Assembly (NCBI RefSeq): GCF_041381155.1
Contig: NC_091137.1
Span: 16,611,765 to 16,675,764 of the forward strand
Length of the DNA: 64,000 bases
From: Argopecten irradians
Taxonomy: Eukaryota > Mollusca > Bivalvia > Pectinida > Pectinidae
Reading direction: 5' to 3'
Shown here: one piece after another, positions 15,134 to 37,100 of the stretch
How the letters are laid out: the number at the start of each line of letters is the position of its first letter
Numbering within the stretch: the first letter of the stretch is position 1
Program-made: the position numbers and the translations under genes
The notes under the pieces: model-generated
What the model saw: only the letters and a program-made list of their open reading frames with translations
What the model was told of the DNA's origin: nothing
Database searches by the model: none

Positions 15134-15584
15134 TCAACGAAACTGTGGTGTTTGATCGTAGTTTGATTCAGTTGCGATTGATTGATCACGTTGTTGAAAT
15201 CCGTCGTAATTGCCCTCCATGACGGAACATGACTGCGCAGTGGCATAGAACGAATCCCGTATCCCCATGGATACTCTTTTTGTCCCTGTCTGGAGTTCGT
15301 TGTAATCCCCCTCCGAGGGAATCTGCACACTGTGGTAAGTGTCAGATCCACTGGTATTCTGCTTCAAACCGGCCCTCTTGTCCATTATATCATAGTTTTG
15401 TTCATCCATATTTCGTATTCCATGTCCTCCACCCTCTGGGGTAGAAGGAAGTCTTGACACCATTGGTGAGCTGACTAGTCGGCTTTGGAGAGATATCCCA
15501 GACGTCTGGTCCTCCTCAACCTCCATATAGTCATAATGTGGACGACTTCGGACAGTAGCTCCTTTTGGCATGTGTACCTTCCTT
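15134..15584 (-). CDS. Gene A exon 11: cytoplasmic tail and stop
   Basis: Starts RKVHMPKGATV and ends TPQFR-TGA. Tyr motifs include HYDYMEV and NYDIMDK (two YxxM, the consensus for PI3-kinase p85 SH2 domains), TYHSVQI (YxxV) and DYNELQT (YxxL), plus FYAT, NYDGF and NYDQT. The tail is hydrophilic with no enzymatic domain, which suggests signalling by adaptor recruitment. Confidence 0.85.
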
Positions 15585-18500
15585 CTGAACAGAAAAGCAT
15601 TTTACAGATGCATAATTCACACGTATGCCTCAGACGTTTTTTTGGGATTAATGAAATACATCCATATTTCTATGATAAGAAATATGAAAAATAGAAAATG
15701 AACCATTAGAGAAATTGTTACACTTACCTCCTCTTTACCAGAACTAGGATTCCGATGATGACCCCACACAAAGCCAGTACTAGCACTACCACAAGCACAA
15801 GGTAGCCTTAAAATGACATGGAAATATGAATATAAGTAAATAAAATCCAAAATAAAAAACAAACACATAGTCACGTATTCTGTCTTCATGGAAGACAATG
15901 CCAGGCCGATATATACACGACTGATGTGATTGCTTTGCCATCCGTCTCACTGGATATGTACATGTACCTCATCGAGTACGTCTTGCATTAATTGGGCGAA
16001 AAATCAATTAAGTCGAATCTCTATGTCAACATCGCAATGAAATACGGACTGGACTTCTGCATAAATGGAGAATATTCCTCTCGAGAGTAAGCTAAGAAGA
16101 CTTGTCTAAATCATAAGACGTATTTTTGGAAGAGGAATATGTCAAACCAAGTTGGATATACAAATCATCGACGTCAATCCTTGTGAAATCGAAGATAAAA
16201 GTGTCCTTTAAGACAACGATCAATAATGATTGAATACAACCTTTCATTTGAGAGATGCACATTCAATTGAATAGATACGATTTTAGATTTTTTTTTCTAC
16301 TGGGACATCTGTCTTGTTTTTACACATGTAGTAAATCTTTATATGAGCGTTAAGAATACATGCGCTCAATTTTCATCTCTAGATTCAAACATATGAGTTC
16401 AGCATAAATGATCATAGTTTTTTTAAGTTTGTTAAAATAAAACTCACTATTTGGAAATAGAGGTGGAACTCACTTATCTTGTCCACTGATATACACTACT
16501 ACAGTATAGTTATGATATTCGGAATTGACAAATACACGGAATAGAGTGGGAACAGATCATACCGATAGAGAAACCTGTATTGGTGGGGTCCGATGATCTC
16601 CCCTCCACTGTTTGATGATCGTCACTGGTCTGGTTGGTATCCGCATCATTAGGAACAGTGTTAGTGATATTTACTGCAAGGAAGTCACCAACAAATCACT
16701 TCGGAATAAATTGATAGTTTTATCTGGACAAACATCACGAGGTTTTATTTGCATTAGATACAAATCAATGTGTTTGGCCCGCTCTGAGATTCCCATCGTC
16801 TGTTAATGGCTCCGTTTCAACATCGTCCGCCTAATTGTAAGATCCAATATGAAATTAATCTAGATTTATATGATAAAGGATGTCAATCAGAAGATGGTAG
16901 CCTCCATGTGATAGTACCTCTAAGGGGGAGCATTACAAATACCATTACCTTCATCGAGATACACGCACATTCTGTGTACGGGACTGCTATATTAGATTAT
17001 ATCACTGGCCCTATCAGACAGGAATAAGAAACATACAATATAAAAATTGTGGTAACAAAACGACCTTGTAATTAACATACGATTTGTGTCAACCGTAGCT
17101 TGGATACCGGGCGTATTGCTCTCCGGTCTAGTGTCATCGCCAGTGTTTTCCTGATCAGTTAGGACAGGGTTGGTGTTATTTGCTGCAAAAGTTTTGCAAA
17201 TAATATATGAATTATTAAAAATGAGACAAAGAAAATGAATTGGCTTCAGTATCAAATTGCTTTATCCTAGGACTTCTCTGGTGCATCATGACTGGACCTT
17301 TGTTTACAACAGCTAACGAAAGCAAATTAAGCTACAAATAGTGAGGAAAGGTACTACTACAAGTTACAAACATGAACTTGTATTGTTTTCGAAATGATAC
17401 TGCAAACACGCTAGTTATTTAGAAGATCAGTTTCAGTTCTACATTTTCAGCCCGGGGGTAAACTGGCTAGTTAACTTACTATCATTTCTGCAACAAGCAT
17501 AAGCCGTTTTGTTACAGTCCATGTATCTAACACCTTGTCCATCATTTGTGACGTAGAGACATTGTGAGGAGTTACTCAGTGGTGAAGTTCCTGGAAGTGA
17601 CCAACTATGTTAGGTAAGTTTGATATAGATAATCGGAGTCTAATTACAATACTGCATCAATGTAACTTAATGAAATGAAGGAATGTGCAGAGAAACGATA
17701 TACACTTCTAGTCAACTACAGAACTGAAAATGGACCAATTTTGGCATATTCCCATTTAAGCGCAAATCTGACATAAAGATATCATGGAAGCGTTAAAATG
17801 TGATAACCGATAAACAGAAGCCCATTTGCATTGGTGCATCTGTATATTTCGAAACAAGAGTCTTAGGGAAATTATACGATCACATTGATATTATCGACAA
17901 TAATTGTGTAATTGAAATAAGAAATCTTATAATGCAAACCTGTCAAATTCTTTGTAGGTGATTTCGCTCTATTAACTGCCACCCAGAAAGACGGTCTTTG
18001 GGGATCTGAAGTAATATTAGTATTTTTTACAATGCTTTTAAATAACGAAAGTCTGTTCGATACATCAGCAAGAACACCACCTTCTCTCCGGCAGAATGCA
18101 TTAGAGTCCTTCCATGACATTTTCTGAAATTCCGATATGTTCACAAATACGTGCAGTGGACCATCTGTCCCTGAACCTACAACAAGTTTACACAATCGGG
18201 GCAATGATTTGTTATATGTCTGATAAATTGCGTTTGCTAACTATTGCATTGTAGATATTATTAAGAGATTTCGTAAACGTTTGAAAACATATAATTACCA
18301 CAAGCCAGTACATCTTTAAACAAATATCACTGACCCTTATTCCGAATACATACTAAATCCCACATATCACAACCGATGGCATGTAATAGTTTTGGGATAC
18401 TTTTCATAGTATACTGCAAATCAACTTTCTGTCGCGTGCGATTTACTTTCTCGAATTTCGCGATCCAAGTACGTATATTAGCGATAATTACCACTTACAT

Positions 18501-21500
18501 TTCATTTTATATCATATTTATTGATAAGAATTTCCATTCGAATTTCCGAAGCGCTAATTTTGATCTTCGTGAATTTGTTTTGAAAAAAAAAGAAATTTAA
18601 TTGCCGCTAAATACAGTTGCTTTATAATATTCAAGTCAATTTTGATTCCGATTCATCATGGAGAGATTTGACATGCATTTCTGGCACCATTGTGCAAGCT
18701 TCTCTGAAGTTATATGAAGCACAATACACTGTGTATGGAAGAGAGGTATCGATACATTTGAAGTCAACGAAGAGGAAATATACTACATGTACATGTATTA
18801 CAGACATTTCGTACCTGTCACACAAACTGGGAAGTGTAGATCGCCACATAATGCTGCCTTCATCTGGCCCGCCATGTCCATGTATGCACAATTGCGCTCG
18901 ATGTGAAACTCCTTCAGACATTGAGCTTCATGACCTTAACCATAAAATTGTAAAAGTTATATGTGCCGTTACTGGGCGAAAAATTTGACATGTTATTTTT
19001 TCTTCATTAATCTATTGAAAAACAATAAATTTTGATGGCCATGAAAATCATTCAAATGGCTTCAAATGCCTTATAAACGTTAGTAACATCACAGAAATTA
19101 TGTAGCTGTAAAAATTGTTTTTTTTTTATTTATGTATGTTTAGATGGAAACATTCCTGCAAAATCACTTTGCAGTTACTAATAACACTGTAAAAATGTGA
19201 AATGAAATTGTAGATCACAACTTGACTTCATGGTCTAACCGTAGGTACTCATAATGATATTTGGCAGTACTGCTAAAAGTTATTTTCTGCTCTTAGTTGT
19301 ACTGGTAAAATTAAATCCAATGTATTGAACGAACTGTAATTTTCAAAATGTTAATAACTTTTGTTGATTAATAACATATTAAAAGTTTATCTTGATTCAT
19401 CAGTATGAAAAATAAGGCACATATAACTTTGATTGTTATTGCTGTAATCCTAAGAATGTAGATATAAAATAGAAGATAATGAACATATTACTATTGATCC
19501 TTACGTATACCACCATTCAATAACAAAGGATCACTTCTACTTACATGGGTTGTAGTGTGTATACAGTTTTGTCCCTCCGCACGGACCGCCATCGTCACAC
19601 ACGTTCCTACATAAAGCGTATGGTTCTACCTTTGTGTTGCTACTGCCACAAAAACACCTTTTTTGCTGGTAAGAACCAAATAAATTGTTACAAATTTTGC
19701 AAAGACATATTAAAAATATTAAGAAATACCTCATCATCACCCTCATAGGTATTTCCCCTTCAAGCAATTGAGATGTAGGTTGTTGAATAAATTATAAGAT
19801 CATAAACTTTTATTCATTGCTATGCCTTTGCAATCGGTATATTTGTATATAAACTGATGTGTTCGAGCACCACGGTTCTGTATGATGAAGACAATTGATA
19901 CAATTGAGATTTGCTGCATTCTAACACGAATTTCAACTTTTCACTTAATGTGATATCTTCCACATAGACATGTATAATTATGGTACACTTTCTTACGAAT
20001 CAAGGTTTTGTATCGACGTAGCGCGCGATATTGGTGATGTCTCAAAATAAACATATCCTTTACTTAAAGCGTTATGATAGAGAAAACAGAGTTGCGGGAG
20101 TTTTTGGGTATTTAACGGTCATCACGTAGACAATGATACCATCTAGTGTCATACTGGGAATTCTCTATGGTATGTTTCAATAGATAACAATGTAATGTAG
20201 ATAATAATTACACATCATCTCGTAGCTTTTACTGACTCAATTTTATAACACATGAATGTACTACTACATGTATATTGCACTAATGGATGTTTTAATGACC
20301 CTACATGATGATACAAGTAGTAAACTTCATCAACCAACTTATTACATTTTCGCTATGAAATATAAGTTTAATTGTGAAAATAAGTGTGATACTATTCATT
20401 CGTGTGATATATCACTTTTGATATTTTCACTCAGTTAAAGATATTTACCAATCTGATCATAGTATTTATATATAATGAAAATATCATTTTTACAGGAATA
20501 CATTTTTTTCAATATTAAAGCAAAAATATAATACAACGCGTATTTTTTCCAGTGAAATTTTCATTTCTAGTTGTTGGATCATCAATGTGTTGCATGATAT
20601 TGTTTTATATTAATTTTCTTCGAAGTCAGTCTGGGAAATAATAAAAGGTATCGCTGCATATCAAAATACATATACTCGTATCAGTAGGTTAAGTCTAGAC
20701 GTTGGACGGAGATATAAACAGGTAATAAATATATCATTCATGGTTTCTTGATGAATATTTAAGCATTATTCTCACTGTCTTTTGGGGTTATGAAGTCAAA
20801 GACAAAACACGAAAGGACTTTTTCTCTTTAATAAAAATTAACATGTGCTTCGCATTCGTGAAAAATATCACAGTTTCCATTCCGTTCGACGAAATATCAC
20901 TTAATTGTTATTCTGCAACATGCTAGAAATGGATAATAACACTACAGGCCATAAAGCAAAAGGAATCGTTACCTGAACAAGGACATTGTTAAAATCATGT
21001 TGGCCACAATGTTGCAGACAGAAAGATCCACTGATCTGCTTAAGCTCAGTGGTTGGTATTACTTCATCTACATTCCAACAACCTGCATACACATAAAATG
21101 AAGAAAAAATAATTTTAAAATATGAAATAATGGATTTATTTATAGAAACGATTAGAAATGTAAAGTAACCCAATGTTGTCATATGAATATCAGAAACCAG
21201 AAATTCAGAGCACATACTATCCTATTTTAGTATGTTCATGTGAATGTTAGATACGAAAACTTAATCATAAACATAAAATCAACATGGATCATCACATCTA
21301 TTTCATCACACACCTTTTTACAATTTATTTTTACTATTTGTCCTCGAATAAAACTTGCCTCTAGCATACACCCAGGGGGCGACAGCATCAACATACTCCC
21401 CCGTCCACAGGCTGACTTGCCCAGTCTCATTCAACACCTTGGCTAGTGCTTCCTCCTCATCTGTCCTCGGTAGAGCCAACGTACTACTTTTATTCACGCA

Positions 21501-22435
21501 TGCGTTATGCGCCTCTAATGCCGACATTGGCTTACGTATGACGAAGTAATTCGAGCCTGAATGTTAAAATAATATATCATTTAACCGATGAGAAATAGAT
21601 ATATTCCAGTTTGAAATATTAAATTTGTATGTAGCGTAATTTTCATTCTCACGAAGAGCTTTTGATGTTATTGGCCACACAAGTTATCAGTACTTTACAA
21701 TACTTACAATGCATAGGTTTAATTTTGATCAACTCAGATAAAAACTCATTGGGAATTTTGGCTGTACTGCCAAAAATCATGATATTTAGGTCTACAGTGA
21801 AGTGAAGTGAGGACACATACCAATAAACCAAGTTGTGGTCTACAATTTAATTTCACAATGTTACAATGGTATTAGTAAATTTAAAAAGTGACTACTTCAG
21901 ATATATTTCCATGTTGTTGAGTGATGATATAATTAAAAAACGTAAATGACCGTAAAATAAATTTATGACAAATTTTGCAGATGTAAAATGTCAAAATTTT
22001 GCTTGATCTTTGATTTTACACGAAGCATCCTTCAGTCGCTTTAGGCCTTGTTTTACCTATAATATCGTTCATATACACTAACTATCGCACTCTGTGTAAA
22101 GAACGACAACTGACTTTGGTGATTTGGTGTGTTGGCCTTAAATGTGTTATCTCCCTTTTAATGTGATATCTGTGACAAATTAAATCCTTGATATTATCCA
22201 CAATTTTCTGTCGGAGTTATAATTTGTATTTCAAGAAAACATTCGACAACCATTGTCAGAGAACATGATACAGCTTTGTTGGTAGATCGGTCGAAATGAA
22301 ACCATTGAATAGATAAAGGATAAAGAGTAACAATAAAGAACATAATTACATCCGGGTCATGAGAAGGTACATATGTAGGTGATATTTACCCGACACGTGC
22401 TGGAGGAGGAGGATGATATACAGAAGGGTCTCCAT
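15134..22435 (-). CDS. Gene A: WSC/C-type lectin type I membrane receptor (11 coding exons)
   Basis: Spliced model: 22435-22390, 21556-21359, 21082-20973, 19665-19545, 18934-18815, 18176-17940, 17590-17480, 17182-17081, 16673-16563, 15806-15728, 15584-15134. The sum is 1686 nt, so the frame closes exactly at 561 residues plus TGA. Domains in order: signal peptide (1-15), N-half of CTLD 1 (16-81), complete WSC domain (82-158), C-half of CTLD 1 (159-198), CTLD 2 (199-314), two Asn/Thr/Asp-rich stalk exons (315-385), one membrane helix (386-410), basic stop-transfer KRRRK, and a ~150-residue cytoplasmic tail with Tyr motifs. Introns are mostly phase 1, typical of shuffled extracellular modules. 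The model implies a cell-surface glycan or protein recognition receptor that signals through phosphotyrosine. Gene B is its tandem paralogue. The ligand is unknown and I know no established gene name. Confidence 0.85.
15728..15806 (-). CDS. Gene A exon 10: transmembrane helix
   Basis: 79 nt, phase 1 to 2. Encodes GYLVLVVVLVLALCG then VIIGILVLVKRR: one membrane helix with a basic cytoplasmic edge. The gene B membrane exon has exactly the same length and phases. Confidence 0.88.
16563..16673 (-). CDS. Gene A exon 9: stalk exon (copy 2)
   Basis: 37 codons, phase 1 to 1. Linker beginning NITNTVPNDADTNQTSDD, paralogous to exon 8, ending TGFSI|G just before the membrane helix. It is symmetric in phase, so it could be skipped without breaking the frame. 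Confidence 0.75.
17081..17182 (-). CDS. Gene A exon 8: stalk exon (copy 1)
   Basis: 34 codons, phase 1 to 1. Encodes an Asn/Thr/Asp-rich linker (NNTNPVLTDQENTGDDT and onward). It resembles the next exon (NxTNxVxxDxxxTxxxDD), so the two look like a duplicated stalk exon. Confidence 0.75.
17480..17590 (-). CDS. Gene A exon 7: C-terminal half of CTLD 2
   Basis: 37 codons, phase 1 to 1. Reads QCLYVTNDGQGVRYMDC then TAYACCRND: the conserved CL....g......DC.....f.C end of a CTLD. This pair of exons forms an uninterrupted CTLD, unlike CTLD 1. Confidence 0.85.
17940..18176 (-). CDS. Gene A exon 6: N-terminal half of CTLD 2
   Basis: 79 codons, phase 1 to 1. Shows MSWKDSNAFCRREGGVLADV (helix 1, first Cys, G-x-LA) and PSFWVAVNRAK (the WVG-like strand). 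Several N-glycosylation sequons (NIS, NIT, NLT) fit an extracellular location. Confidence 0.85.
18815..18934 (-). CDS. Gene A exon 5: C-terminal half of C-type lectin domain 1
   Basis: 40 codons, phase 1 to 1. Reads HEAQCLKEF near its start and ends ALCGDLHFPVCVTG, the CL...C....p.vC pattern of a CTLD C-terminus. It has no N-half of its own; that half lies two exons upstream, before the WSC exons. Its ends were chosen by ttaag acceptor, gtacg donor and frame. The gene B counterpart (31948-32064) ends SFLCAVG in the same way. Confidence 0.75.
19545..19665 (-). CDS. Gene A exon 4: second half of WSC domain
   Basis: Starts QKRCFCGSSNT, then LCRNVCDDGGPCGGTKLY: the CxCG, CxxxC and CGG..l.Y elements that close a WSC domain. 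Acceptor ttaccag, donor T|gtaagt, phase 0 to 1. Confidence 0.84.
20973..21082 (-). CDS. Gene A exon 3: first half of WSC domain
   Basis: Begins GCWNVDEV and contains SFCLQHCGQHDFNNVLVQ, matching the WSC pattern Gc(f/w)...C...C......v. Acceptor tgcag, donor CAG|gtaacg, ending in phase 0. WSC domains are Cys-rich putative carbohydrate-binding modules. Confidence 0.82.
21359..21556 (-). CDS. Gene A exon 2: N-terminal half of C-type lectin domain 1
   Basis: 66 codons, phase 1 to 1. CTLD hallmarks in order: the Ala-rich helix ALEAHNACV with the first conserved Cys, LALPRTDEEE (second helix), SLWTGEY (the WxG strand) and APWVYARG. The domain stops here and a WSC domain follows, so the rest of this CTLD lies in the exon at 18815-18934. 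The donor is GC (G|gcaagt) instead of GT. The homologous gene B exon ends at the same place with G|gtactt, which supports this boundary. Confidence 0.82.
22390..22435 (-). CDS. Gene A exon 1: start codon and signal peptide
   Basis: Encodes METLLYIILLLQHVSG, a short hydrophobic leader, then donor GG|gtaaat (phase 1). This ATG is chosen because it directly precedes the hydrophobic core and joins in phase to the next exon. An upstream in-frame ATG (to about 22558) would add a non-hydrophobic extension and is less likely. Confidence 0.75.
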
Positions 22436-23255: not shown

Positions 23256-23686
23256 TATTTCACAGGAATGTGTGACAATTATTGTTACATTTCACAGGAA
23301 TGTGTGACAGATATTGTTAAATTTCACAGGAATGTGTGACAGATATTGTTACATTTCACAGGAATGTGGAATGCGTGACAGATATTGTTACACTTCACAG
23401 GAATGCGTGACAGATATTGTTGCATTTCACAGGAATGCATGACAGATATTGTTAAATTTCACAGGAATGCGTGACAACTATTGTTAAATTTCACAGGAAT
23501 GTGTGACAGATATTGTTAAATTTCACAGGAATGCATGACAGATATTGTTACATTTCACAGGAATGCGTGACAGATATTGTTACATTTCACAGGAATGTGT
23601 GACAGATATTGTTAAATTTCACAAGAATGCGTGACAGATATTGTTACATTTCACAGGAATGCGTGACAACTATTGTTTAATTTCAT
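23256..23686. repeat. 32 bp minisatellite, about 13 copies
   Basis: Unit TTTCACAGGAATGTGTGACA then GATATTGTTACA. Variants at GTGTGAC/GCGTGAC/GCATGAC and TTACA/TTAAA, and one unit with a 7 bp duplication near 23365. It lies between the 5' end of gene A and the 3' end of gene B. Confidence 0.92.
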
Positions 23687-25041: not shown

Positions 25042-25720
25042 TCATGGTAGTGGGTCTGAATGTCTATCATCGACATAGGGATTGTAAGTGTCGTTTCCGT
25101 TGGCACTTGGTGGTGCATTAGTCAGGGTATTGTACACGCCTGAATCGAGTGTATTTTGAGTCGTATCATACACACTTATATCTACTTCCCTGTTTCTATA
25201 TCCTGGTTTTTGGATTTTGTGGTAGAGCTCCTCATCGGAACCGGAAACCGCTCCGATGTGATCATAAACATCATCACGCGCATTGTGGCGAGGAGGGTCT
25301 TCATGTAGATCGTTATATAGGTCACTGTCGGAAGCAACATGTCGGATAACGTTTTGATTTGCCTCATGCTCTAATAAGGACCCTTCATGTTTCGGTGATT
25401 GCTCATTCGGGGAATTATTTGCTAGATCATAAAGGTTATCACAGTTTTGTGCTAAATCATAAGGAGCGTCATCTCTAATGCTTCCACTCAAATCGAGACA
25501 GTGTGGATTGCTCTCATATTTTAGTAAATTGACGACTGTATTTCCTTTTTGTCCCGTGGTCTCTCCTTTACTGGCAGTATGGCTCCTCTCTGTGTCGCCC
25601 TCAGCAAGTCTGCGGGACTCGTGTTCCATCTCCCCCACCGTTATATCTAGATAATCGTAGTTATGTGTCTCTAAAGGGATCGTATCTCTATCAGTAGCTT
25701 CCTTAGTCCTATGGCGACGG
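25042..25720 (-). CDS. Gene B exon 10: long tyrosine-rich cytoplasmic tail and stop
   Basis: About 225 residues after the basic edge (RRRHRTKEATD), ending HSDPLP-TGA. Tyr motifs include NYDYLDI, PYDLAQN, LYDLANN, LYNDLHE, VYDHIGA, LYHKIQK, GYRNR, VYDTT, VYNTLTN and TYNPY. VYDHI and LYHKI are two YxxI units with 10 residues between them, an ITAM-like layout, but the spacing is wider than the classic 6-8. Acidic and Asn/Asp-rich with no enzymatic domain. It is unlike the gene A tail apart from the first NYDY/HYDY motif. Confidence 0.86.
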
Positions 25721-28700
25721 CTGTCGTAAATATAACAAAACAAAAATCACTTATATTAGATACTTCAATATCCGAGCTAGAAACGACAACAAAATATCAG
25801 TACACATTGAGACATTGAGTCATCTCAGAAAACATGACGTCATGCTAGCACATATTGCGTCATGAGATCACCACACATAGGTACTGACGTCAGTTATGTA
25901 CATGGCTAGGTATGCAATTTATTTGTTGACGAAATCCAAAAAATGTTGAGGAGATTTCAATAATATTTATTTAATTGTAAAACGAGCCATCTCAGTGATT
26001 TTAATTTTTACTTACCGCCGTACGCATACAATAATTCCCAATGCTGTAAGAACGGAGATGGTAGCACATCCAACAATGATATAGGGCCTTATGTCTGTAA
26101 AAGATGATCAAGTTGTGGTGATCAGTGGTTAGAGATAGCACTACCAGGTCAGTAAAATCCCCCTACAATTATAAATTGATGTTAACGAAACTCTGCATCC
26201 ACATTTTTATATATTCAATATTCTGTGAAGACCTTATGAATTAGTCACTAGTTCTAAATCATTATTTTAATGGGAAAAGAGTGATTCATTCGGGAATATC
26301 AAAGTTAAGATAGGACCAAATAACTAGTAACCATAACCATTATTATTCATTTTTTAAGCTGATAAATTATAATGATAAGGATTGCTTGTTTGATTAAATT
26401 AACGTCCTATTAACAGGTCATGTAAGGGACGGCCTCCCATGTATGCGTTGTGTAGTGTGTATGAATTGCGTGTTGCATGTTTTGAGAGACTGCGGTAACA
26501 TATATTTATTTTCACCATTCTCCATCACGCCTTTTGCGTGAAGAAACTTACAAGATAGTCGAAACCTATTCTTCATTTTGTGATATATGATTATTAGATG
26601 ATAAAGATCTCTTAACAATTTGAACTCAAGCAAACATTTTATTTCAACTGTAATACCACAAACATATGTAGGCGAAGTGCAATTCCAGAGCATATTTGTC
26701 TGCTTATTTAGTAAAATATTGTAATTCGAATAATTTTCAGCAAATATCAAATTTAATAGCCTCTTCTTTAAAAACAATTAAATAAAGAAAATCAAATAAA
26801 GACCAAACATGCAGAAGGAGCACAGAGAATAATTAAATACCGTGAGAATAATTAAATACCGTGTAGTAGGGAGGAACACAGAGAATAATTAAACTCCGTG
26901 TAGTAGGGAGGAACATAGAGAATAATTAAATACCGTATAGTCGGGAATTTTGTGGGATGATATTTTCGGGAAAATTTCAACTGTGAAATATTTAGAAATT
27001 ATTGAATAATAAATGTTTTAAAACCGAATCACGAAATCTTTGTTAACTAAAATTTGATTTTCTGTTTATGACCAAATCGCGAAAATAAACGACTTTACGG
27101 TAACATGTGAACTTAACGGTAAGTCAGAAACGTGTGAACTTTATGGTAAGCCAGTAACATGTGTACTTTACGGTAACACAGTAACATGTGAGCTTTACGG
27201 TAAATCAGTAACATGTGAATTAAACAATACCAGATTGTGTTACAGGCGGTTCTTTGTCGTTGATGTCAGTCGTGCTACTCGGAATGGCGGCCTTTGGTAC
27301 ATGTAGACATGTCTGATGTTATTGTTGTGACCTCAGGTCTGGTTATATCCGTTGATGTTGTGGCATCCGGTATCCCGGTGATCATGACCTCTCTGGTTAG
27401 ATCTGTTGATGTTATGGCATCCGGTATCCTGGTGACCGCTCTGGTTATATCTGTTGTAGTTGTGACATCTGATATTTCGGTAACCGCTGTGACACTGTAA
27501 TTTTGCTCTGTCGGTAATTAAGTGGAATAAAAAAATTTCAATTAGTAATATTACAAAATTGTTAACTAATTAGAAAATGCAAGATGAAGATTTCAATATA
27601 TATAATATGATACAATCCCACATACATTTTGTGGGCCTGTGCTGAAAAATATTTCGAACTTCGTCCTTGATCGCATTTTGATTTCGAACGTCTTTAAATT
27701 ACAGGGTGTCCCATAAATCAGGTTACGCTTTCAAAATGTTATTATTTTTGACATACATGAGCCACAAAAAAGATATTTTGCTATATGAAAATATGCAATC
27801 AAACGTTTTATTTTATGCATAATATAAAATAATAATTTGATTCTGCTGAAAACCATTGACGTCGTAGTGACATCACCACTTTTAAGATATTGGCAGGTCA
27901 AGAGAACATTATACAGGCACTGAAAAATGTTTTATTCTTTGTGAAACAGTGTTTTTGTTCATATAATGCCCCAGTTCTTAACAACTCAAATCCTTCCTGT
28001 GTGAGTATTACCAGAGGGGCAGAAAGTAATCACCAACACCAGAAAATATTGTCCAATGCATTAATTAGGTAGTATAAAATAAGAACAAATTTTTAATGCT
28101 ACTGCTCAAATGTTGCTCAAATATCACGGATAACGTCGTTTTTACAGTATGTTATTTTCAAAAATGTGTCTTTTGTGAAAATCGTTGCTAGGATTACATA
28201 GATTTGTTTGTTAAGCTGTTTGTTAATCAAAATATGAAATGTATGATTGCAGGCTTTTTGGAGATGAAATCCTGTTGCTTTACTTGTTGTAATAAAGATC
28301 ATTTTGAACTTTGAAAGTGCATCATAATTTATGGGACACCCTGTACTAATCAGGTGAAACAATCATATATCCTGGTCCAGATGCGATTGTATTTAAGCAA
28401 TATATCAAAAATTGAATGTCAGATAAAATATCCCTTGCGGATCACAAACGTTAAATTATATCCAATCAATGCCGGAACGTTGATAATTGATCTTGAAATG
28501 GCGGCCGTGTATTACCACAAACATCTCACAAATATGGGTAATAGAAAACCGTTTCAATCATGGAAAGACCATAGGAACCTCTGACAATCACAGGAAATCG
28601 GAGTGCTTTACAGATAACAATTCAAACCCGGGGTTAGGTTTTAAAATGGCCTTAGCAGTAAACACGATAGCTTGTATCTGCTATAAAGAAGTCTCTGTAA

Positions 28701-31700
28701 TCATATAATTACAAATAGTCTTTAAACCAATACATGTACACATACGCATGACTAAAGTGCCTATTTTGTGCCAAAAATGATTTTCTTATTTGTTTTTTTT
28801 GGGAGAGGGATGCTGCAATATCATTTTTTTTATTTGTTCAGAAAACTAAATATGAACATGTTTGATGTCATATATGCAAGCCAAGAAGTTACATTTTTAA
28901 ATATATTAAGAACAAGAGATAAAATATGACGGATTTTAAATATGCACGTTTAATATTACGCGATATATGCAAAAATTCATATTCACATTAAGAAATATTT
29001 GTTCATTGAACATATTCTTGAATTTTCACTCTACTTAAATGTCATAATAGCATTTAACAATTGTATTCTTTAGAATATTGTAAACCATCTTATATTCACG
29101 CATAAGATATTCCACCTCTTCGTTATTTTCATCATATTTTCTACCATATGGCTCTTACAGACATATCGTGTACCGATGTGGTACCATTTCTTTCCCCCTC
29201 TAATAGTTTCCCCGGGGAATGAATCGGCTAGGTGATTCTTTCCCCTCTCTTGAATAATTCTAGGGGGAACTATTGGCTAGCTGATTATTTCCCCCCTCTC
29301 GATTAATTTCCAAGGGGGGGGGAACTATTGACTAGCTGATTCTTTTCCCCTCTTGATTACATCTAGGGGGAAACTGTTGGCTAGCTGATTCTATCCCCCT
29401 CTCGAACTATTTCCAGGAGATGGGGAGACCATTGGCTAGCTGATTCTTTCCCTTTCTCGATATTTTTTAGGGGGGGGGGGTTGGCTTGCTGATACTTCCC
29501 CCCTTCTTTATATATTTTTAGGAGGGGAAAACTATTGTCTAGCTGATTATTTCCCCTTCTTGATTAATTCTAAGAGGGGAAACTATTGGCTTGCTGATTC
29601 TTTCCCCTCTCTTGTTTAGATCTGGGGGAAACTATTAGCTGGCTGATTCTTCCCCCCCTCTTGATTAATTCTAGGGGGGGACTATTTGCTAGCTGATCCC
29701 TCCTCTTGATTATATCTAAGGGGGGGGGGGGGGTTATTGGCTAGCTGATCCCCCCTCTTGATTAATTCAAGGGGGGAATTATTGGCTTGCTTATTCTCCC
29801 CCCCCTTTTGATTATATCTAGAGGGAAGGGGGGGGGGCAAATAAGCTAGTCAATAGTTTCCCCCTTATAGAATAAATAGACAGGGAAGGGAGGTAAGAAT
29901 CAGCTAGTTAAAAGTTCCCCCCTAGAAATAAATATAGAGGGAAGGGCGGGGGGGGGGAGAATCAGCCAGCCAATAATTACCCCCCTAGAAATAAATAGAC
30001 AGAGAATGGGGAAAGAATCAGCAAGCCAGTAGCCCCCATCCTCACCCTAGAAATAAATAGACAGGGAATGGGGAAAGAATCAGCTAGCCAATGGTTGCCC
30101 CCACCCCCTAGAAATAAAATCAGAGGGAAGGGGGGAAGAATAAGCAAGTCAAAAGTATTCCCCATAGAAAAAAGAGACAGGAAACGGGGAGGGGGGATCA
30201 GCTAGCCAATAGTTCCCCACATATAAATAAATAGACAGGGAAGGGGTAAAGAATGAGTTAGCCAATAGTCCCCCAAAGATATTAATAGATAGGGAAGGGG
30301 GAAGAATAAGCTAGTCAATTGTCCCCCTCCTAGATATAAAGAGACAGGAAAGTGGGGAAAGAATCAGATAGACAATAGTTCCCCCTAAAAATAACTTTCC
30401 CCGGAAAAAAAATCAGCAGGGGGGGGGGGAGAATTTGCTGTTGGTATTCAGTGTAAAGGTTTAGACAATGATTCGCGACACATTTGAATTCGCGTACAAT
30501 CTTTCGCGAAAATACGCGACAATGTGTATCTCTCTCAGATAAACTGTATCTCTCTCAGATAAAATGCCTTACAGTATTATCATATGCAATATTGTTGTGT
30601 ACGCATTGGTATAAGTATCACGTGTTTTAAAGCTTGTACTCTACGCCTACTTTGGTCTCCAAAGTTTTTATCCATTACTCGAAGGGATATTAATGAATAC
30701 GTAAATTTAATCAATAAATAAATGTTAATTATGATAACTTACGCTTCTGCCGACACAGAAATGATGATTTTTTGGTACAGTCATGCAATCTATCTTGGGA
30801 CACGCTCGGTGATCCTTTGACTATGTATAGGCACCATTGGTTGGTAACATTGGATGGGGGATCTGGAATTACAAATCAGAGACGCTTCTCAGGGTTTAGT
30901 TCGTCATTATAGGGATCGTTACTTCGTCAGAAGGAGATAAATCAACCGTGACATGTTTTTATGGTCCACGATATCACTGATATATATTTTTCCTTGTTGA
31001 TTTAGTCACGGGTTTAATATATAGATACATCGAAATATAAAACGTTGCATCAGTTAATATGATGAAGATATAATAATTGTTAACTAAACCAACTGAAACG
31101 GAATAAGTATACTGTTAATTTGTTGGGTAACTCGTCCTATTAAAAGTTAGGACCATTTAAGAACTTGCCAATTTTATATGATAGAGGAAAACTGAAGTAA
31201 CATGAAAAATCACCAACCAGAGATCAATAACTGGCAACCGCCAACATTGAATTAGAACTCACTGAAATGGTTATATGCATAATCTTTAAATAAACCTATA
31301 TTTCAGAAAATCATGAAATTAGATTTTTTTCAACTGATTGATCAACTTGTCAACTATGTTTTCTGGTTAATGTATAATGTCACCAGTTATTAAGTTAAAT
31401 TCAAATTATGACAGACCCTACCCTTCACAGACTCTACAAAGAGCTCTCTTCTGCGGACTCCAACCCAATACTGTGAAGGTTCGCTATATCTAAACTGGCT
31501 GACACTCAGTTTTGTCGGGTTGGCCAGGTAGCTCCCATTGGTAACACAATGCTTCAGTGCGTTTTTATAATTAAGAAAAAGAGCACTTCCGTTATTGTTC
31601 TGGGGTATATAAAACGGTCGGTCGCTGCTGTCATTTGAATCTATGAAAATATAAGGATGGCATAAGTTAGATAATATATCCATGGGCAAATTATCGAGAG

Positions 31701-33987
31701 AAAAAAAAAACCCAGAAATTAATAAATATTGCATTATTCCTCCTTTTCATGTCACTTTTCTGTTTATACAAGGTTTTTTGACACAATTTTAAATATTATT
31801 GACAAATAGTTTTTTTATATCTTCTTTTTCATTTCACGTTTTTGCAAATACTTTACAAAAATACGGGATGCCTTCACCAACACGAATCGCAAATTGACAT
31901 GACAATGAATTATAAGAATATGAAGATAAGATTTTCAGTTTACTTACCCACTGCACACAAAAAGGATTTCGGAATCAGACAGTGTCGCGCTTTTATCACA
32001 ATGGAGGAACCTTTCTCCGCCATTCCACAATGGGACCTACTGATACCTCCCTTGATATCAGTGTCTGTACCAAATAGCAGTATGCATAAGAAAATCATTC
32101 GAGATAAATTACCTTTATAACTTTATTACTTTTACATTTCAGTGAAATACAATGATATCATTAAGAATATGAAGATATTAAATATTAGTTTATATACTGT
32201 ATACCAACTTTCGCGACCAAATTAAATTTGCTAATATTTGTTGCTGTGAAATAGTATAAAAGTGTGGAGCATTATAAAGTGATTGCCGACTAGGATACAC
32301 CCTGAGTCATTGGAAATACATTTTAATTAAGATTTGATCAGTGAATCATTGTCCACAGGCATACTAGGACGGTATTTACATGTAACGTAGTGTTGATAGA
32401 CCTCGTGTCCTCCACAGTAGTCCTCCTTCTGGCCTGGACAGGTGATGTTACACAGCTTTAGGGGCTTCCGAGTAGATACATCCGGAGGTTCATCAACACA
32501 CACACAGTTATATATCTGTTAAAGGAAAACTTCTATTAAAACTATTTATCATACAGAAAAGAACTCGTATAAGGTTTATTCATGTTAATTGATTTTCATA
32601 CCCATAATGTACAACACAGTATTACGCTTTTAAATTATCCTTTTGCCTATAAAAGTTATCAATGCAAATATTGCATATCGAAAATTCCGATAGATAGAAA
32701 CGTTACAATTGATCCGACTACATCTATGAGTTCCGAAAACGACCAATTGCAAATACTGAATATGATAAAACAGTCCATTTTGACTTACGTTCACTAGGAT
32801 GTCAGAAGCACCACAAAAACGTCGACATTCAGAAATGTCATTTTGTTCGATTCTATGTATCTGTCGAGTTGAACTAAAACAACCTGAATCAGAACAAAGA
32901 AGTAAATACAATGGGCGGATTCGTTTACTAAAGAGAGTAATATAACAGAGAATCGTGTTGTTTAAATGTCTGTTTGATCTCCGGGCTTTAACCAGAAAAG
33001 GATAAAAGGCATGGATATCATCATATTTCGTACTAGCAATTATTTGTAGTAGAACTGGAAATATCCATCTTCTCCCAACGTAATATATATGAATCATGGA
33101 CCTTTTACGGACCTTTGTTGGGGTCCATTATGCTGTTATAACGACCGGTTAGAATACATTCGGTGTTTCTAAAAATGGAAACACCGAGACAATATGCTAG
33201 TGACAATGAAAATTGTGGAAAATAATATCATATCTAAAGTTTTGATATAAAGTACCAGTGGGATACATCCAGGGCGTGGTGTATGTGTATTGGCCGACCC
33301 AGACGGGGTCAGAGGTCGTTAGAAGTTGTCGAAGTTTCTCGACCTCCTCTGGCGTAGGTACGGCGAGGGTGGCGTATATGTCTCTACAGGTCTCGAAGGC
33401 CTCATCCCACGTTAACTTGATGTCGTAAAGCCACAAAGTATCTAAACACACAATGCCATCAAAATATCAATTTGATTGAAATAGTGATTACTGGTTTCTG
33501 TTGATTCTGCTGTTAAAAAAATGAAAGGATAGAAAAAGGATTTGGACACATGCAAAACGTCCACTCGATATTATGACGACCACAAAACTAAAAGCAAATG
33601 ATAAAAAACTGTTACTACTGAAGAGAATAGCTCAGGAAAAGTCTTCATACATTAAGTTAGGAAATTCTTCATGGGATGTTATGTTCAAAGAAAAACAATC
33701 TCAGAATTTTTTTTTATCTAGCTCACATATGAAGTTTTACATATTTTTTATAGATCATTTTCAGTCGAGGCCTAAACTATCAACTAGGAAGTTTATCATT
33801 CAACATCAAGTCTGTTCATTACAATACACGCCATCAATGAAATATAACACACAAACAAAAACTTCGTGTTTAGGTCATATACATAACGTTAACTATACAC
33901 ATTACCACTGATTTTCGTTCTATCCTCGGCGTTGACCCTCACTCCCTGTAGTGATACCACCAGGATAATGATCCAAGGATGACCCAT
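25042..33987 (-). CDS. Gene B: WSC/C-type lectin type I membrane receptor, paralogue of gene A (10 coding exons)
   Basis: Spliced model: 33987-33906, 33441-33256, 32883-32789, 32515-32380, 32064-31948, 31640-31422, 30862-30743, 27486-27231, 26094-26016, 25720-25042. Architecture matches gene A: signal peptide, CTLD 1 split by a WSC domain, CTLD 2, Thr-rich stalk, membrane helix, tyrosine-rich tail (~655 residues). Intron phases match gene A at every shared boundary and both membrane exons are 79 nt. The pair lie head to tail about 2.6 kb apart, so tandem duplication is the simple explanation. The extracellular sequences are strongly diverged while the Cys framework is kept. One defect: the stalk exon needs one base fewer for the frame to continue. 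The intron before the stalk exon carries a large inverted minisatellite and a mariner-like MITE. Confidence 0.83.
26016..26094 (-). CDS. Gene B exon 9: transmembrane helix
   Basis: 79 nt, phase 1 to 2. Encodes DIRPYIIVGCATISVLTALG then IIVCVRR: one helix with a basic cytoplasmic edge, same length and phases as gene A exon 10. Confidence 0.86.
26385..26530. mobile_element. Fragment of a second interspersed repeat sharing the SINE tail
   Basis: TTAACGTCCTATTAACAG then GTCATGTAAGG is the reverse complement of the 3' tail of the SINE at 11022. It is followed by a different body (GGCCTCCCATGTATGCGTTG, GTGCATGTTTTGAGAGACTG-like). In a gene B intron. Confidence 0.5.
26818..26944. repeat. 37 bp tandem repeat, about 3.5 copies
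   Basis: Unit GAGAATAATTAAATACCGTG then TAGTAGGGAGGAACACA; the first unit is truncated to about 19 bp. In a gene B intron. Confidence 0.85.
27095..27222. repeat. 27 bp tandem repeat abutting the gene B stalk exon
   Basis: About 4.5 imperfect copies of AGTAACATGTGAACTTTACG then GTAAGTC. Ends within 10 bp of the donor site of exon 27231-27486. Confidence 0.82.
27231..27486 (-). CDS. Gene B exon 8: Thr-rich repeated stalk, with an apparent one-base frame error
   Basis: Encodes a Thr/Ile-rich stalk of about three imperfect 23-25 residue repeats (ITSTDLTREV, TTSTDITRPEV, IPDAT...). The entry frame (acceptor cacag at 27487-27488) runs to a TAG near 27254, while the frame needed by the membrane exon is the +1 frame, reading AIPSSTTDINDKEPPVTQSG at the end. 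The exon is 256 nt; 255 would keep the phase 1 to 1 symmetry seen in the gene A stalk exons. The slip lies around 27290-27330. It may be an assembly error, an allele or real damage. A minisatellite abuts the donor side. Confidence 0.65.
27702..28343. mobile_element. Mariner-like non-autonomous element
   Basis: Ends CAGGGTGTCCCATAAAT and ATTTATGGGACACCCTG are perfect 17 bp inverted repeats flanked by TA on both sides, the Tc1/mariner target duplication. 642 bp; I see no transposase motif. It lies in the gene B intron between exons 7 and 8. Confidence 0.82.
28344..29180. other. Intron sequence of gene B, nothing recognised
   Basis: AT-rich; the two short frames (28354-28584, 28487-28708) have no support. 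Confidence 0.45.
29185..30430. repeat. Large inverted minisatellite (two opposed arrays)
   Basis: Left arm (to about 29825): about 12 units of ~50-55 bp with GCTAGCTGATTCTTTCCCCT, CTTGATTAATT and a G-run, then AACTATTG. Right arm (from about 29830): about 11 units in the opposite orientation (AATCAGCTAGCCAATAGTTC, C-run, TAGAAATAAATAGACAGGGA). The arms turn over near 29825 with no spacer of note. G and C runs vary from 4 to 12. It sits in the gene B intron between exons 7 and 8. Confidence 0.88.
30743..30862 (-). CDS. Gene B exon 7: C-terminal half of CTLD 2
   Basis: 40 codons, phase 1 to 1. NQWCLYIVKGSP then RLHDCTKKSSFLCRQK: CL....C.....flC end of the CTLD. Acceptor ttccag, donor C|gtaagt. 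Confidence 0.86.
31422..31640 (-). CDS. Gene B exon 6: N-terminal half of CTLD 2
   Basis: 73 codons, phase 1 to 1. Reads LNYKNALKHCVTNGSYLANP and SQYWVGVRRREL (WVG strand). Acceptor ttcatag, donor G|gtaggg. Confidence 0.83.
31948..32064 (-). CDS. Gene B exon 5: C-terminal half of CTLD 1
   Basis: 39 codons, phase 1 to 1. Contains SRSHCGMAEKGSS and ARHCLIPKSFLCAVG: the C...C....flC signature that ends a CTLD. As in gene A, its N-half lies upstream of the WSC exons, so this is an interrupted CTLD and not a tandem one. Confidence 0.82.
32380..32515 (-). CDS. Gene B exon 4: second half of WSC domain
   Basis: Begins IYNCVCVDEPPD, then LKLCNITCPGQKEDYCGGHE and VYQHY: the CxC, CxxxC and CGG..vY elements of a WSC C-terminus. 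Phase 0 to 1. Confidence 0.86.
32789..32883 (-). CDS. Gene B exon 3: first half of WSC domain
   Basis: Begins GCFSSTRQI and contains ISECRRFCGASDILVN, the WSC first-half Cys pattern. Acceptor attcag, donor AAC|gtaagt, phase 1 to 0. Confidence 0.85.
33256..33441 (-). CDS. Gene B exon 2: N-terminal half of CTLD 1
   Basis: 62 codons, phase 1 to 1. LTWDEAFETCRDIYATLAVP, then PEEVEKL, DPVWVGQYT and PWMYPTG: the same CTLD N-half as gene A exon 2, ending at the equivalent residue before the WSC domain. Canonical gt donor here. Confidence 0.85.
33906..33987 (-). CDS. Gene B exon 1: start codon and signal peptide
   Basis: Encodes MGHPWIIILVVSLQGVRVNA, a good signal peptide with a likely cleavage after VNA, then EDRTKIS. 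Donor G|gtaatg, phase 1. The 44 bp tandem array begins only about 140 bp upstream. Confidence 0.82.
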
Positions 33988-34129: not shown

Positions 34130-37100
34130 CTAACGTCAGTGTTCCACAATAGTTCCTCCTTTAATGTAATATTTTAAGGTCAGTGTCCCACAATATTTCC
34201 TCCTTTAATGTATTATTATAAGGTCAGTGTCCCACAATAGTTCCTCCATTAATGTGTTATTATAAGGTCAGTGTCCCACAATAGTTCCTCCTTTAATGTG
34301 TTATTATAAGGTCAGTGTCCCACAATAGTTCCTCCTTTAATGTGTTATTATAAGGTCAGTGTCCCACAATAGTTCCTCCTTTAATGTGTTATTATAAGGT
34401 CAGTGTCCCACAATAGTTCCTCCTTTAATGTGTTATTATAAGGTCAGTGTCCCACAATAGTTCCTCCTTTAATGTGTTATTATAAGGTCAGTGTCCCACA
34501 ATAGTTCCTCCTTTAATGTGTTATTATAAGGTCAGTGTCCCACAATAGTTCCTCCTTTAATGTGTTATTATAAGGTCAGTGTCCCACAATAGTTCCTCCT
34601 TTAATGTGTTATTATAAGGTCAGTGTCCCACAATAGTTCCTCCTTTAATGTGTTATTATAAGGTCAGTGTCCCACAATAGTTCCTCCTTTAATGTGTTAT
34701 TATAAGGTCAGTGTCCCACAATAGTTCCTCCTTTAATGTGTTATTATAAGGTCAGTGTCCCACAATAGTTCCTCCTTTAATGTGTTATTATAAGGTCAGT
34801 GTCCAAATAGTTCCTCCTTTAATGTGTTATTATAGGTCAGTGTCCACAATAGTTCCTCCTTTAATGTGTTATTATAAGGTCAGTGTCCACAATAGTTCCT
34901 CCTTTAATGTGTTATTATAAGGTCAGTGTCCACAATAGTTCCTCCTTTAATGTGTTATTTAAGGTATGTCCACAATAGTTCCTCCTTAATGTGTTATTAT
35001 AAGGTAGTGTCCACAATAGTTTCCTCCTTTAATGTGTTATTATAAGGTCAGTGTCCACAATAGTTCCTCCTTTAATGTGTTATTATAAGGTCAGTGTCCC
35101 ACAATAGTTCCTCCTTTAATGTGTTATTATAAGGTCAGTGTCCCACAATAGTTCCTCCTTTAATGTGTTATTATAAGGTCAGTGGTCAGTGTATCCCACA
35201 ATAGTTCCTCCTTTTAATGTTTATTATAAGGTCAGTGTCCCACAATAGTTCCTCCTTTAATGTGTTATTATAAGGTCAGTGTCCACAATAGTTCCTCCTT
35301 AATGTGTTATTATAAGGTCAGTGTCCCACAATAGTTCCTCCTTAAAGTGTATTATGGTAGTGTCCAAATAGTTCCTCCTTTAATGTGTTATTTAAGGTCA
35401 GTGTCCCACAATAGTTCCTCTTTAAATGTTATATAAGGTCAGTGTTCCTCCATAAATAGTTCCCTCCTTTAATGTTTATTATTATAAGGTCAGTGTCCCA
35501 CAATAGTTCCTCCTTTAATTGTATTATAAGGTAGTGTCCCACAATAGTTCCTCTTTAATGTGTTATTATAAGGTAGTGTCCCACAATAGTTCCTCCTTAA
35601 GTAGTGTCACATTGTTATTTTAAGGTCAGTGTCCCACAATAGTTCCTCCTTTAATGTGTTATTATAAGGTCAGTGTCCCACAATAGTTCCTCCTTTAATG
35701 TGTTATTTATAAGGTCAGTGTCCCACAATAGTTCCTCCTTTAATTGTTATTATAAGGTCAGTGTCCCACAATAGTTCCTCCTTTAATATGTTATTATAGG
35801 GTAAGTGTCCAACAATAGTTCCTCCTTAAATATGTTATTATAAGGTCAGTGTCCCACAATAGTTCCTCCTTTAATGTGATATTATAAGGTCAGTGTCCCA
35901 CAATAGTTCCTCCTTTAATGTGTTATTATAAGGTCAGTGTCCCACAATAGTTCCTCCTTTAATGTGTTATTATAAGGTCAGTGTCCCACAATAGTTCCTC
36001 CTTTAATGTGTTATTATAAGGTCAGTGTCCACAATAGTTCCTCCTTTAATGTGTTATTATAAGGTCAGTGTCCCACAATAGTTCCTCCTTTAATGTGTTA
36101 TTATAAGGTCAGTGTCCCACAATAGTTCCTCCTTTAATTGTTATTATAAGGTCAGTGTCCCACAATAGTTCCTCCTTTAATGTGTTATTATAAGGTCAGT
36201 GTCCCACAATAGTTCCTCCTTTAATGTGTTATTATAAGGTCAGTGTCCCACAATAGTTCCTCCTTTAATGTGTTATTATAAGGTCAGTGTCCCACAATAG
36301 TTCCTCCTTTAATGTGTTATTATAAGGTCAGTGTCCCACAATAGTTCCTCCTTTAATGTGTTATTATAAGGTCAGTGTCCCACAATAGTTCCTCCTTTAA
36401 TGTGTTATTTTAAGGTCAGTGTCCCACAATAGTTCCTCCTTTAATGTGTTATTATAAGGTCAGTGTCCCACAATAGTTTCTTCTTTAATGTGTTATTATA
36501 ATAGGTCAGTGTCCCACAATAGTTCCTCCTTTAATGTGTTATTATAAGGTCAGTGTCCCACAATAGTTCCTCCTTTAATGTGTTTTTAAGGTCAGTGTCC
36601 ACAATAGTTCCTCCTTTAATGTGTTATTATAAGGTCAGTGTCCCACAATAGTTCCTCCTTTCCAATAGTGTTATTATAAGGTCAGTGTCCCACAATAGTT
36701 CCTCCTTTAATGTGTTATTATAAGGTCAGTGTCCCAACAATAGTTCCTCCTTTAATGTGTTATTATAAGGTCAGTGTCCCACAATAGTTCCTCCTTTAAT
36801 GTGTTATTATAAGGTCAGTGTCCCACAATAGTTCCTCCTTTAATGTTATTATAAGATCAATGTCCCACAATAGTTCCTCCTTTAATGTTATTATAAGGTC
36901 AGTGTCCCACAATAGTTCCTAATGTTATTATAGGTAGTGTCCCACAATAGTTCCTCCTTAATGTGTTATTATAAGGTCAGTGTCCCCAATGTTCTCCTTA
37001 ATTATATAGGTCAGTGTCCACAATAGTTCCTCCTTTAATGTGTTATTATAAGGTCAGTGTCCCACAATAGTTCCTCCTTAATGTGTATTATAAGGTCAGT

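What the first reader, a model, noticed from the sequence alone, without database searches (positions are those of the whole stretch)
18815..21556. A WSC domain nested inside a C-type lectin domain (gene A)
Seen: exon 21359-21556 encodes only the N-half of a CTLD (…WTGEY…PWVYARG). The next two exons encode a complete WSC domain, and the exon after that encodes only a CTLD C-half (…CL…C…PVC). All boundaries keep frame. Known: CTLD and WSC normally occur as separate tandem modules. Inference: a WSC module bounded by phase-1 introns was inserted in the long loop region of a lectin fold, so two putative carbohydrate-binding domains form one nested unit. This is the strongest candidate for an undescribed architecture here.
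Basis: partly seen in the sequence, partly recalled or inferred. Interest (0 to 1): 0.82.

Follow-up and report, generated by a model that had tools for sequence, protein, structure and literature searches.

The report
WSC domain nested inside lectin domain
An animal cell-surface receptor gene carries one small domain inserted into the middle of a lectin-type domain, and the same nested design recurs in a neighbouring gene and in many intron-free relatives in the same genome, so it looks like a real receptor family rather than a gene-reading error.

Summary
Confirmed and extended. The exons at 21556-18815 encode CTLD N-half, WSC (two exons) and CTLD C-half with matching phases; gene A reads through 11 exons as a 561-aa receptor. 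It is not unique. Gene B in the same window, 28% identical, has the same exons and phases; there Pfam recognises the WSC, and the joined flanking halves score as Lectin_C. Seventeen loci elsewhere in the genome show the same order, 16 of 17 with the whole ectodomain in one uninterrupted reading frame, so splicing error cannot explain it. A 12-row profile with the WSC cut out hits 28 PDB sequences, all CTLD proteins by name or recall, 27 across the junction. The WSC starts 14-16 residues after the WIGL tryptophan in 16 of 19 rows, at the long loop; CTLD2 of both genes has an empty phase-1 intron there. Exon shuffling into that intron is the likely origin. Not shown: folded structure (the one prediction was useless), transcripts, ligand, signalling. 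Papers mention CTLD with WSC in bivalves; my searches found no nested form. New variant of a known kind.

The parts
22390..22435 (-). gene A exon 1, signal-peptide-like start (METLLYIILLLQHVSG)
   Evidence: signal peptide judged by eye
21359..21556 (-). gene A exon 2, CTLD1 N-half, phases 1/1, GC donor
   Evidence: Pfam
20973..21082 (-). gene A exon 3, WSC N-part, phases 1/0
   Evidence: alignment with gene B
19545..19665 (-). gene A exon 4, WSC C-part, phases 0/1
18815..18934 (-). gene A exon 5, CTLD1 C-half, phases 1/1
   Evidence: joined-half Pfam
17940..18176 (-). gene A exon 6, CTLD2 N-half
   Evidence: Pfam 25.6 bits with exon 7
17480..17590 (-). gene A exon 7, CTLD2 C-half; the phase-1 intron before it is the empty site
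17081..17182 (-). gene A exon 8, stalk
   Evidence: frame and splice sites only
16563..16673 (-). gene A exon 9, stalk
   Evidence: frame and splice sites only
15728..15806 (-). gene A exon 10, transmembrane helix, phases 1/2
   Evidence: hydrophobic run by eye
15134..15584 (-). gene A exon 11, cytoplasmic tail (8 Tyr in 150 aa) and stop
33906..33987 (-). gene B exon, signal-peptide-like start
33256..33441 (-). gene B CTLD1 N-half, phases 1/1, GT donor
32789..32883 (-). gene B WSC N-part, phases 1/0
32380..32515 (-). gene B WSC C-part, phases 0/1
31948..32064 (-). gene B CTLD1 C-half, phases 1/1
31422..31640 (-). gene B CTLD2 N-half
   Evidence: (18.9 bits with the next exon, below cut-off)
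30743..30862 (-). gene B CTLD2 C-half
26016..26094 (-). gene B transmembrane exon, 79 nt as in gene A (stalk exons between 30743 and 26094 not located)
25042..25720 (-). gene B cytoplasmic tail, Tyr-rich

Best explanation
Genes A and B belong to a family of type I cell-surface receptors whose first C-type-lectin-like domain has a complete WSC domain in place of most of its long loop, followed by an ordinary second CTLD, a stalk, one transmembrane helix and a tyrosine-rich tail. Origin (inferred): a phase-1/phase-1 two-exon WSC cassette was shuffled into the phase-1 intron that splits the CTLD just before its long loop. Later a spliced copy was probably retroposed and expanded into the intronless genes on C7 and C16. 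Working (inferred): the CTLD core closes around the insert and acts as a rigid stem that presents the WSC where ordinary CTLDs carry their ligand-binding loop. Ligand binding then leads to tyrosine phosphorylation of the tail and SH2-protein signalling, most likely in innate recognition. Shown here: order, frames, phases, domain identity by sequence, recurrence. Not shown: fold, ligand, expression, signalling.
For: Gene A CDS in frame over 11 exons. Gene B has the same exons and phases at 28% identity, and both WSC cassettes are 231 nt (110+121; 95+136). Gene B WSC 35.6 bits over a 27.8 cut-off and joined CTLD1 halves 27.7 over 22.6. Shuffled C-half control negative in 9 of 9. In 16 of 17 aligned loci on C7/C16 one ORF runs through N-half, WSC, C-half and CTLD2, and in 16 of 17 the ORF also holds a TM stretch. 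PDB profile with WSC removed: 28 hits at E<=10, best 2.7e-10, all CTLD proteins by name (one, yk1067a12, by recall), 27 of 28 stretches spanning profile position 69 where the cut lies. C-half-only profile: 6 of 6 hits are CTLD C-termini, weak (E 0.19-4). WSC profile: 4 of 4 hits Kremen-1, E 0.058-0.093. Cysteines: in gene B the N-half has 1, the WSC 8, the C-half 3, so the lone N-half cysteine needs a partner beyond the WSC. CTLD1 and CTLD2 profiles match each other (hhalign probability 92.7). Other WSC genes of this genome carry the same internal phase-0 intron (L009, L012). Gene B's tail is similar to the tail of L059 (47.4 bits; best of 50 shuffles 36.2). Purifying selection between the intact pair L040/L041: dN/dS 0.26 (N-half), 0.46 (WSC), 0.28 (C-half).
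Against: No structure: single-sequence prediction had mean pLDDT 28.1. No transcripts. N-half followed by WSC also passes the Lectin_C cut-off (23.9 bits), and joining the C-half lowers the score against the multi-CTLD protein LY75 (56.6 bits N-half only; 35.2 joined). Six of 19 rows (L057, L060, L061, L062, L066, L068) have only two cysteines in the C-half segment, so a C1-C4 bridge across the WSC is not universal. Pfam misses the CTLD in 4 of 4 full-length intronless proteins and scores WSC below cut-off in 2 of 4; at E<=1, 7 of 12 joined CTLD1s and 3 of 13 WSC segments match. dN/dS is high or noisy for some segments of other pairs (up to 1.74 and 2.87 on few changes). Gene A's tail has no similarity above shuffled level to the other tails (best 23.9 bits). 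The tree does not resolve whether A/B are basal, so retroposition is inference. ITIM-like motifs occur in 12 of 16 tails but no control for chance was run.
Confidence: 0.7

Rival explanations
1. The halves close, but between chains: CTLD1 N-half pairs with the C-half of a partner molecule (domain swap through the long loop), with the WSC as the swapped arm, giving an obligate dimer.
For: Some PDB hits of the CTLD1 profile are subunits of heteromeric snake-venom CTLD proteins (rhodocetin, mucrocetin, flavocetin), where swapping through this loop is known (recalled). Nothing in the sequence distinguishes cis from trans closure.
Against: The remaining linker from WSC to the second CTLD1 cysteine is short (11-15 residues in 18 of 19 rows), which fits a compact loop but does not exclude swapping.
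Confidence: 0.12
2. The CTLD1 halves are decaying flanks: only the WSC and CTLD2 fold and work, and the N-half is kept as a secretion/spacer segment.
For: Six of 19 rows have lost at least one C-half cysteine and L061 has lost the N-half cysteine too; L057 and L062 lack the WIGL tryptophan.
Against: In the 12 rows of A3 the five CTLD marks (C, W, C, C, C) are invariant; dN/dS for L040/L041 is 0.26 and 0.28 in the two halves, lower than in the WSC (0.46) or CTLD2 (0.63).
Confidence: 0.1
3. In genes A and B the WSC is an optional cassette: both WSC exons can be skipped in frame, giving a plain CTLD isoform and a nested isoform from one gene.
For: The cassette is 231 nt with phase-1 ends in both genes, and gene A's donor before it is a GC site, a class often linked with alternative splicing (recalled).
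Against: In the intronless relatives the WSC is fixed in the reading frame. No RNA was seen either way.
Confidence: 0.2
4. Gene-model artefact: unrelated exons of neighbouring genes were joined by eye.
For: Only genomic DNA is at hand for A and B; gene A's WSC exons are not recognised by Pfam.
Against: Same order and phases in gene B and the same order without introns in 16 of 17 aligned loci.
Confidence: 0.02

Closest known systems
Polycystin-1 (PKD1) and sea-urchin REJ proteins
   Same: Contain a WSC and a CTLD in one extracellular region (PMC9672506, passages seen; PMC1934368, listing only).
   Different: There WSC and CTLD are listed as separate domains of an 11-TM protein with LRR and PKD repeats; gene A has one transmembrane stretch and the WSC lies inside the CTLD.
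Bivalve CTLD-containing proteins with extra domains, including WSC (PMC10140915)
   Same: The Discussion names WSC among domains of bivalve-specific CTLD proteins, all uncharacterised (passages and section 2.4 seen).
   Different: No nesting is mentioned in the parts I saw; figures and supplements were not seen, so overlap with this family is possible.
PLA2 receptor / LY75 and NK-type CTLD receptors
   Same: Best PDB sequence matches of the CTLD1 profile; NK-type CTLDs likewise lack the sugar-binding loop motifs (recalled).
   Different: No inserted domain; NK receptors are type II, gene A is type I by its signal-peptide-like start and C-terminal tail (by eye).
Kremen-1/2
   Same: WSC domain; the only PDB match of the WSC profile; kremen-2 also has a phase-0 intron inside its WSC (PMC3927609, passages).
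   Different: Kringle-WSC-CUB in series (recalled), no CTLD.
Tandem CTLD and WSC exons at C4:40.58-40.60 Mb of the same genome
   Same: Both domain types in neighbouring exons (CTLDs by eye, no Pfam run).
   Different: WSC exons lie between complete-looking CTLD exons, not inside one.

Membership tests
C-type lectin-like domain (Lectin_C, PF00059) | Pfam cut-off 22.6 bits when the two CTLD1 halves are joined | tested here: met
   A 25.2, B 27.7; the full-length intronless proteins miss it in 4 of 4
C-type lectin-like domain (Lectin_C, PF00059) | Four core cysteines and the WIGL tryptophan | tested here: met
   Invariant in the 12 rows of A3; 7 of 19 rows were left out beforehand because truncated or lacking the last cysteine
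C-type lectin-like domain (Lectin_C, PF00059) | One compact fold closed by the two halves | tested here: inconclusive
   Single-sequence AlphaFold2, mean pLDDT 28.1
Sugar-binding (calcium-dependent) C-type lectin | EPN or QPD in the long loop and WND before the third cysteine | tested here: not met
   By eye on the CTLD1 segments; motifs recalled
WSC domain (PF01822) | Pfam cut-off 27.8 bits | tested here: met
   Gene B 35.6 alone, 32.6 in the whole protein; gene A no match; intronless 15.8 and 18.8 in 2 of 4, below cut-off
WSC domain (PF01822) | Eight-cysteine pattern with CxC and CG | tested here: met
   A4, 13 rows: C2, C20, C24, C36, C38, C54, G67 invariant, C58 and C66 at 90% or more; Kremen-1 only PDB hit
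Polycystin-1 / REJ | LRR and PKD repeats, many transmembrane helices | tested here: not met
   Gene A CDS is 561 aa with one hydrophobic stretch; Pfam on the first 314 aa gave Lectin_C only
ITIM/ITAM-type signalling receptor | Tail tyrosines phosphorylated and bound by SH2 proteins | not testable with these tools
   Motif presence only: ITIM-like in 12 of 16 tails, 0 in gene A, which has two YxxM

The most novel reading that the evidence does not exclude
A lineage-expanded innate receptor repertoire in which the variable ligand-binding loop of a C-type-lectin fold has been replaced by a whole second domain: a domain-in-domain recognition head on tyrosine-signalling receptors, made once by exon shuffling, then retroposed and expanded to dozens of intronless loci.
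Probability: 0.42. Interest if true: 0.75.

Novelty: new variant of a known kind. Interest (0 to 1): 0.6.

Why it matters
Nested domains are rare compared with tandem ones, and this case keeps its footprints: the empty intron in CTLD2, the cassette with its own internal intron, and intronless descendants in one genome. It shows how the CTLD long loop, the place where ordinary members bind ligands, can take a whole domain. It also exposes a receptor family that domain databases largely miss (0 of 4 full-length intronless proteins reach a Pfam cut-off), so surveys of lectin receptors built on Pfam would undercount it.

Tried and rejected
Structure: one AlphaFold2 job on L070 without an alignment gave mean pLDDT 28.1 and was not used further; no fold search was run. 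Rejected as relatives: the two-exon WSC genes at C4:14.18 and 16.86 Mb have no CTLD in the stretches read and Thr-rich regions instead; they served only as intron comparison. The six-frame WSC family search lists neither gene A nor gene B (13 matches). Gene A's protein found no other homologue than itself and one weak gene B exon (7 matches); gene B was the useful query. Species: not determined; a myosin route failed because the loci could not be cut out; 'bivalve' is my guess and untested. A tree (18 rows) joins A with B (100/99) but leaves the rest weak. dN/dS was computed for 8 pairs; only L040/L041 is long enough in all segments to lean on.

Rows dropped before counts: from the loci L040-L069 I aligned 17, leaving out short, truncated, interrupted or duplicate ones (L043, L045-L049, L053, L054, L058, L064, L065, L067, L069). 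A3 used 12 of 19 rows (without L042, L057, L060, L061, L062, L066, L068). A4 used 13 of 19 (without L042, L059, L060, L061, L062, L066). A5 used 12 of 19.

Literature: nine full-text searches over a held open-access library; none listed a nested CTLD/WSC. Subscription papers, preprints, supplements and InterPro architectures were not searched.
Full report
1. The observation. The window is G000:C4:16611765-16675764 of an unnamed 845.8-Mb genome. On the minus strand, exon 21556-21359 (phase 1/1) ends in ...WTGEYVDAVAPWVYARG; 21082-20973 (1/0) and 19665-19545 (0/1) carry GCW...C...C...CFC...C...C...CGG; 18934-18815 (1/1) carries the ...C...C...C...C end of a CTLD. With seven more exons the CDS is 1686 nt, in frame, 561 aa: signal-peptide-like start, CTLD1 N-half, WSC, CTLD1 C-half, CTLD2, two stalk exons, one transmembrane stretch, 150-aa tail. 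The splice sites are GT-AG except the donor after 21359, which is GC.

2. Is it a CTLD and a WSC? For gene A alone the evidence is thin: joined halves 25.2 bits against a Lectin_C cut-off of 22.6, and no Pfam match for the WSC. Gene B, in the same window at 33987-25042, settles it. It has the same exon order and phases at 28% identity; its WSC passes Pfam (35.6 bits alone) and its joined CTLD1 halves score 27.7. Swapping halves between A and B gives 24.5 and 28.8 bits; N-halves alone 18.6 and 22.3; C-halves alone nothing; B's N-half plus its WSC 23.9, which also passes but runs only to profile position 85. Nine shuffled C-halves behind B's N-half gave 21.1-22.4 bits and never ran past position 64.

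3. The family. Gene B's protein finds open reading frames without introns on contig C7, and one of these finds more on C7, C16 and C642 (33 matches at E<=0.1). Two further queries bring the merged total to 42 match clusters, counting partial matches and one 120-base fragment on C13; counts are lower bounds by the tool's own note. I aligned 17 of these loci with A and B. All 17 have the WSC-type block between the two CTLD-type halves; in 16 of 17 it lies in one ORF with both halves (L042's N-half is in another frame), and in 16 of 17 the ORF also holds a transmembrane stretch (not L050). Several other copies contain stops, so part of the family is decayed. The distance from the WIGL tryptophan to the junction is 14-16 residues in 16 of 19 rows; L042 is truncated and L057 and L062 lack the tryptophan.

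4. Fold evidence without a structure. A profile of 12 joined CTLD1s (WSC removed) hits 28 PDB sequences at E<=10, best PLA2 receptor 2.7e-10; all are CTLD proteins by name, one (yk1067a12) by recall, and 27 of 28 matched stretches include profile position 69, where the WSC was cut out. In the printed alignments the cut falls just after the strand that reads 'GWQWSDG' in the PLA2 receptor, at the start of the long loop. The C-half-only profile gives 6 hits, all CTLD C-termini but weak (E 0.19-4). The N-half-only profile gives 15 hits, 13 of them CTLDs, and scores higher than the joined profile against LY75 (56.6 against 35.2 bits), so most of the signal is in the N-half. The WSC profile hits only Kremen-1 (4 of 4, E 0.058-0.093). 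CTLD1 and CTLD2 profiles match each other (92.7%); the CTLD2 profile hits CTLD proteins only by name (42 at E<=1, best 7.2e-4). Cysteine counts fit nesting in gene B (1, 8, 3) and in most rows (1, 8-10, 3), but six rows have only two cysteines in the C-half. The one structure prediction, single sequence, failed (pLDDT 28.1).

5. Origin. CTLD2 of gene A and of gene B is split by a phase-1 intron 15 residues after its tryptophan (hand count), the same place as the WSC junction in CTLD1 (16 and 15). An intron 'downstream of the WIGL motif' is known in fish CTLD genes (PMC514892, passages). The WSC cassette is 231 nt in both genes with a phase-0 intron 3-4 residues before its CxC; the other two-exon WSC genes of this genome that I could check (L009, L012) have that same intron, and so does kremen-2 by report (phase 0, PMC3927609, passages). 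So a standard WSC cassette inside a standard CTLD intron is the simplest account. The intronless members then look like descendants of a reverse-transcribed mRNA (inference; the tree, does not resolve it).

6. How it probably works. Type I receptor; the CTLD1 core as stem, the WSC as head in the loop position, CTLD2 below, and a tail with repeated tyrosines (3.8-8.2% Tyr in 16 tails; ITIM-like motif in 12 of 16; gene A none, but two YxxM, no chance control). Gene B's tail resembles that of L059 (47.4 bits, shuffled maximum 36.2); gene A's does not resemble any above shuffled level. L040/L041 show dN/dS of 0.26, 0.46 and 0.28 in N-half, WSC and C-half, in line with selection on the nested unit; other pairs are noisier. 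Ligand binding, glycan specificity and immune role are inference from the domain types.

7. Known or new? Tandem CTLD plus WSC is known in polycystin-1 (PMC9672506, passages), and WSC is named among the extra domains of bivalve-specific CTLD proteins (PMC10140915, section 2.4 and passages). A 2025 review of bivalve C-type lectins has no occurrence of WSC, inserted or nested in its main text (PMC12842671). Nine searches found no nested form.

Noticed in passing
window 34131-36999: 44-bp tandem array, 65.7 copies, about 150 bases upstream (minus-strand sense) of gene B's first exon.
   Followed up: no
window 29226-30394: Arrays of roughly 50-60-bp units with C-runs and G-runs in the gene B intron; the unit core AACTATTGGCTAGCTGATT on one side of about 29840 is the reverse complement of the core on the other side, so the array is inverted at its middle.
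   Followed up: no
window 23257-23685: 32-bp tandem repeat, 13.2 copies, between genes B and A.
   Followed up: no
L009 3400-5600 and L011 2300-6950 (C4:16.86 and 14.18 Mb): In two-exon WSC genes the intron before the second WSC exon holds a long array whose unit resembles the exon's own start (...LLLQYRTQC...), so the acceptor region seems to have been copied many times (by eye).
   Followed up: no
C4:40.58-40.60 Mb (L016, L017): Cluster with WSC exons alternating with CTLD-like exons in series, an ordinary tandem arrangement in the same genome (by eye).
   Followed up: partly
C7:32.00-32.03 Mb (L033/L050, L038/L053, L042, L046, L049): Intronless family cluster with several interrupted copies; in L033 the transmembrane and tail part lies in a different frame from the ectodomain.
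   Followed up: no
L051 and L057 tails: Tails contain in-frame tandem repeats of tyrosine motifs (YDHTNNxYGxLHAGKR; VYNSLINIGRSQDDDYSQLNTEDQR), so the number of tail tyrosines may vary by repeat number.
   Followed up: no
L010 6400-9300 (C4:16.877-16.880 Mb): Overlapping ORFs that look like reverse-transcriptase and integrase parts of a retroelement beside a WSC gene (by eye).
   Followed up: no
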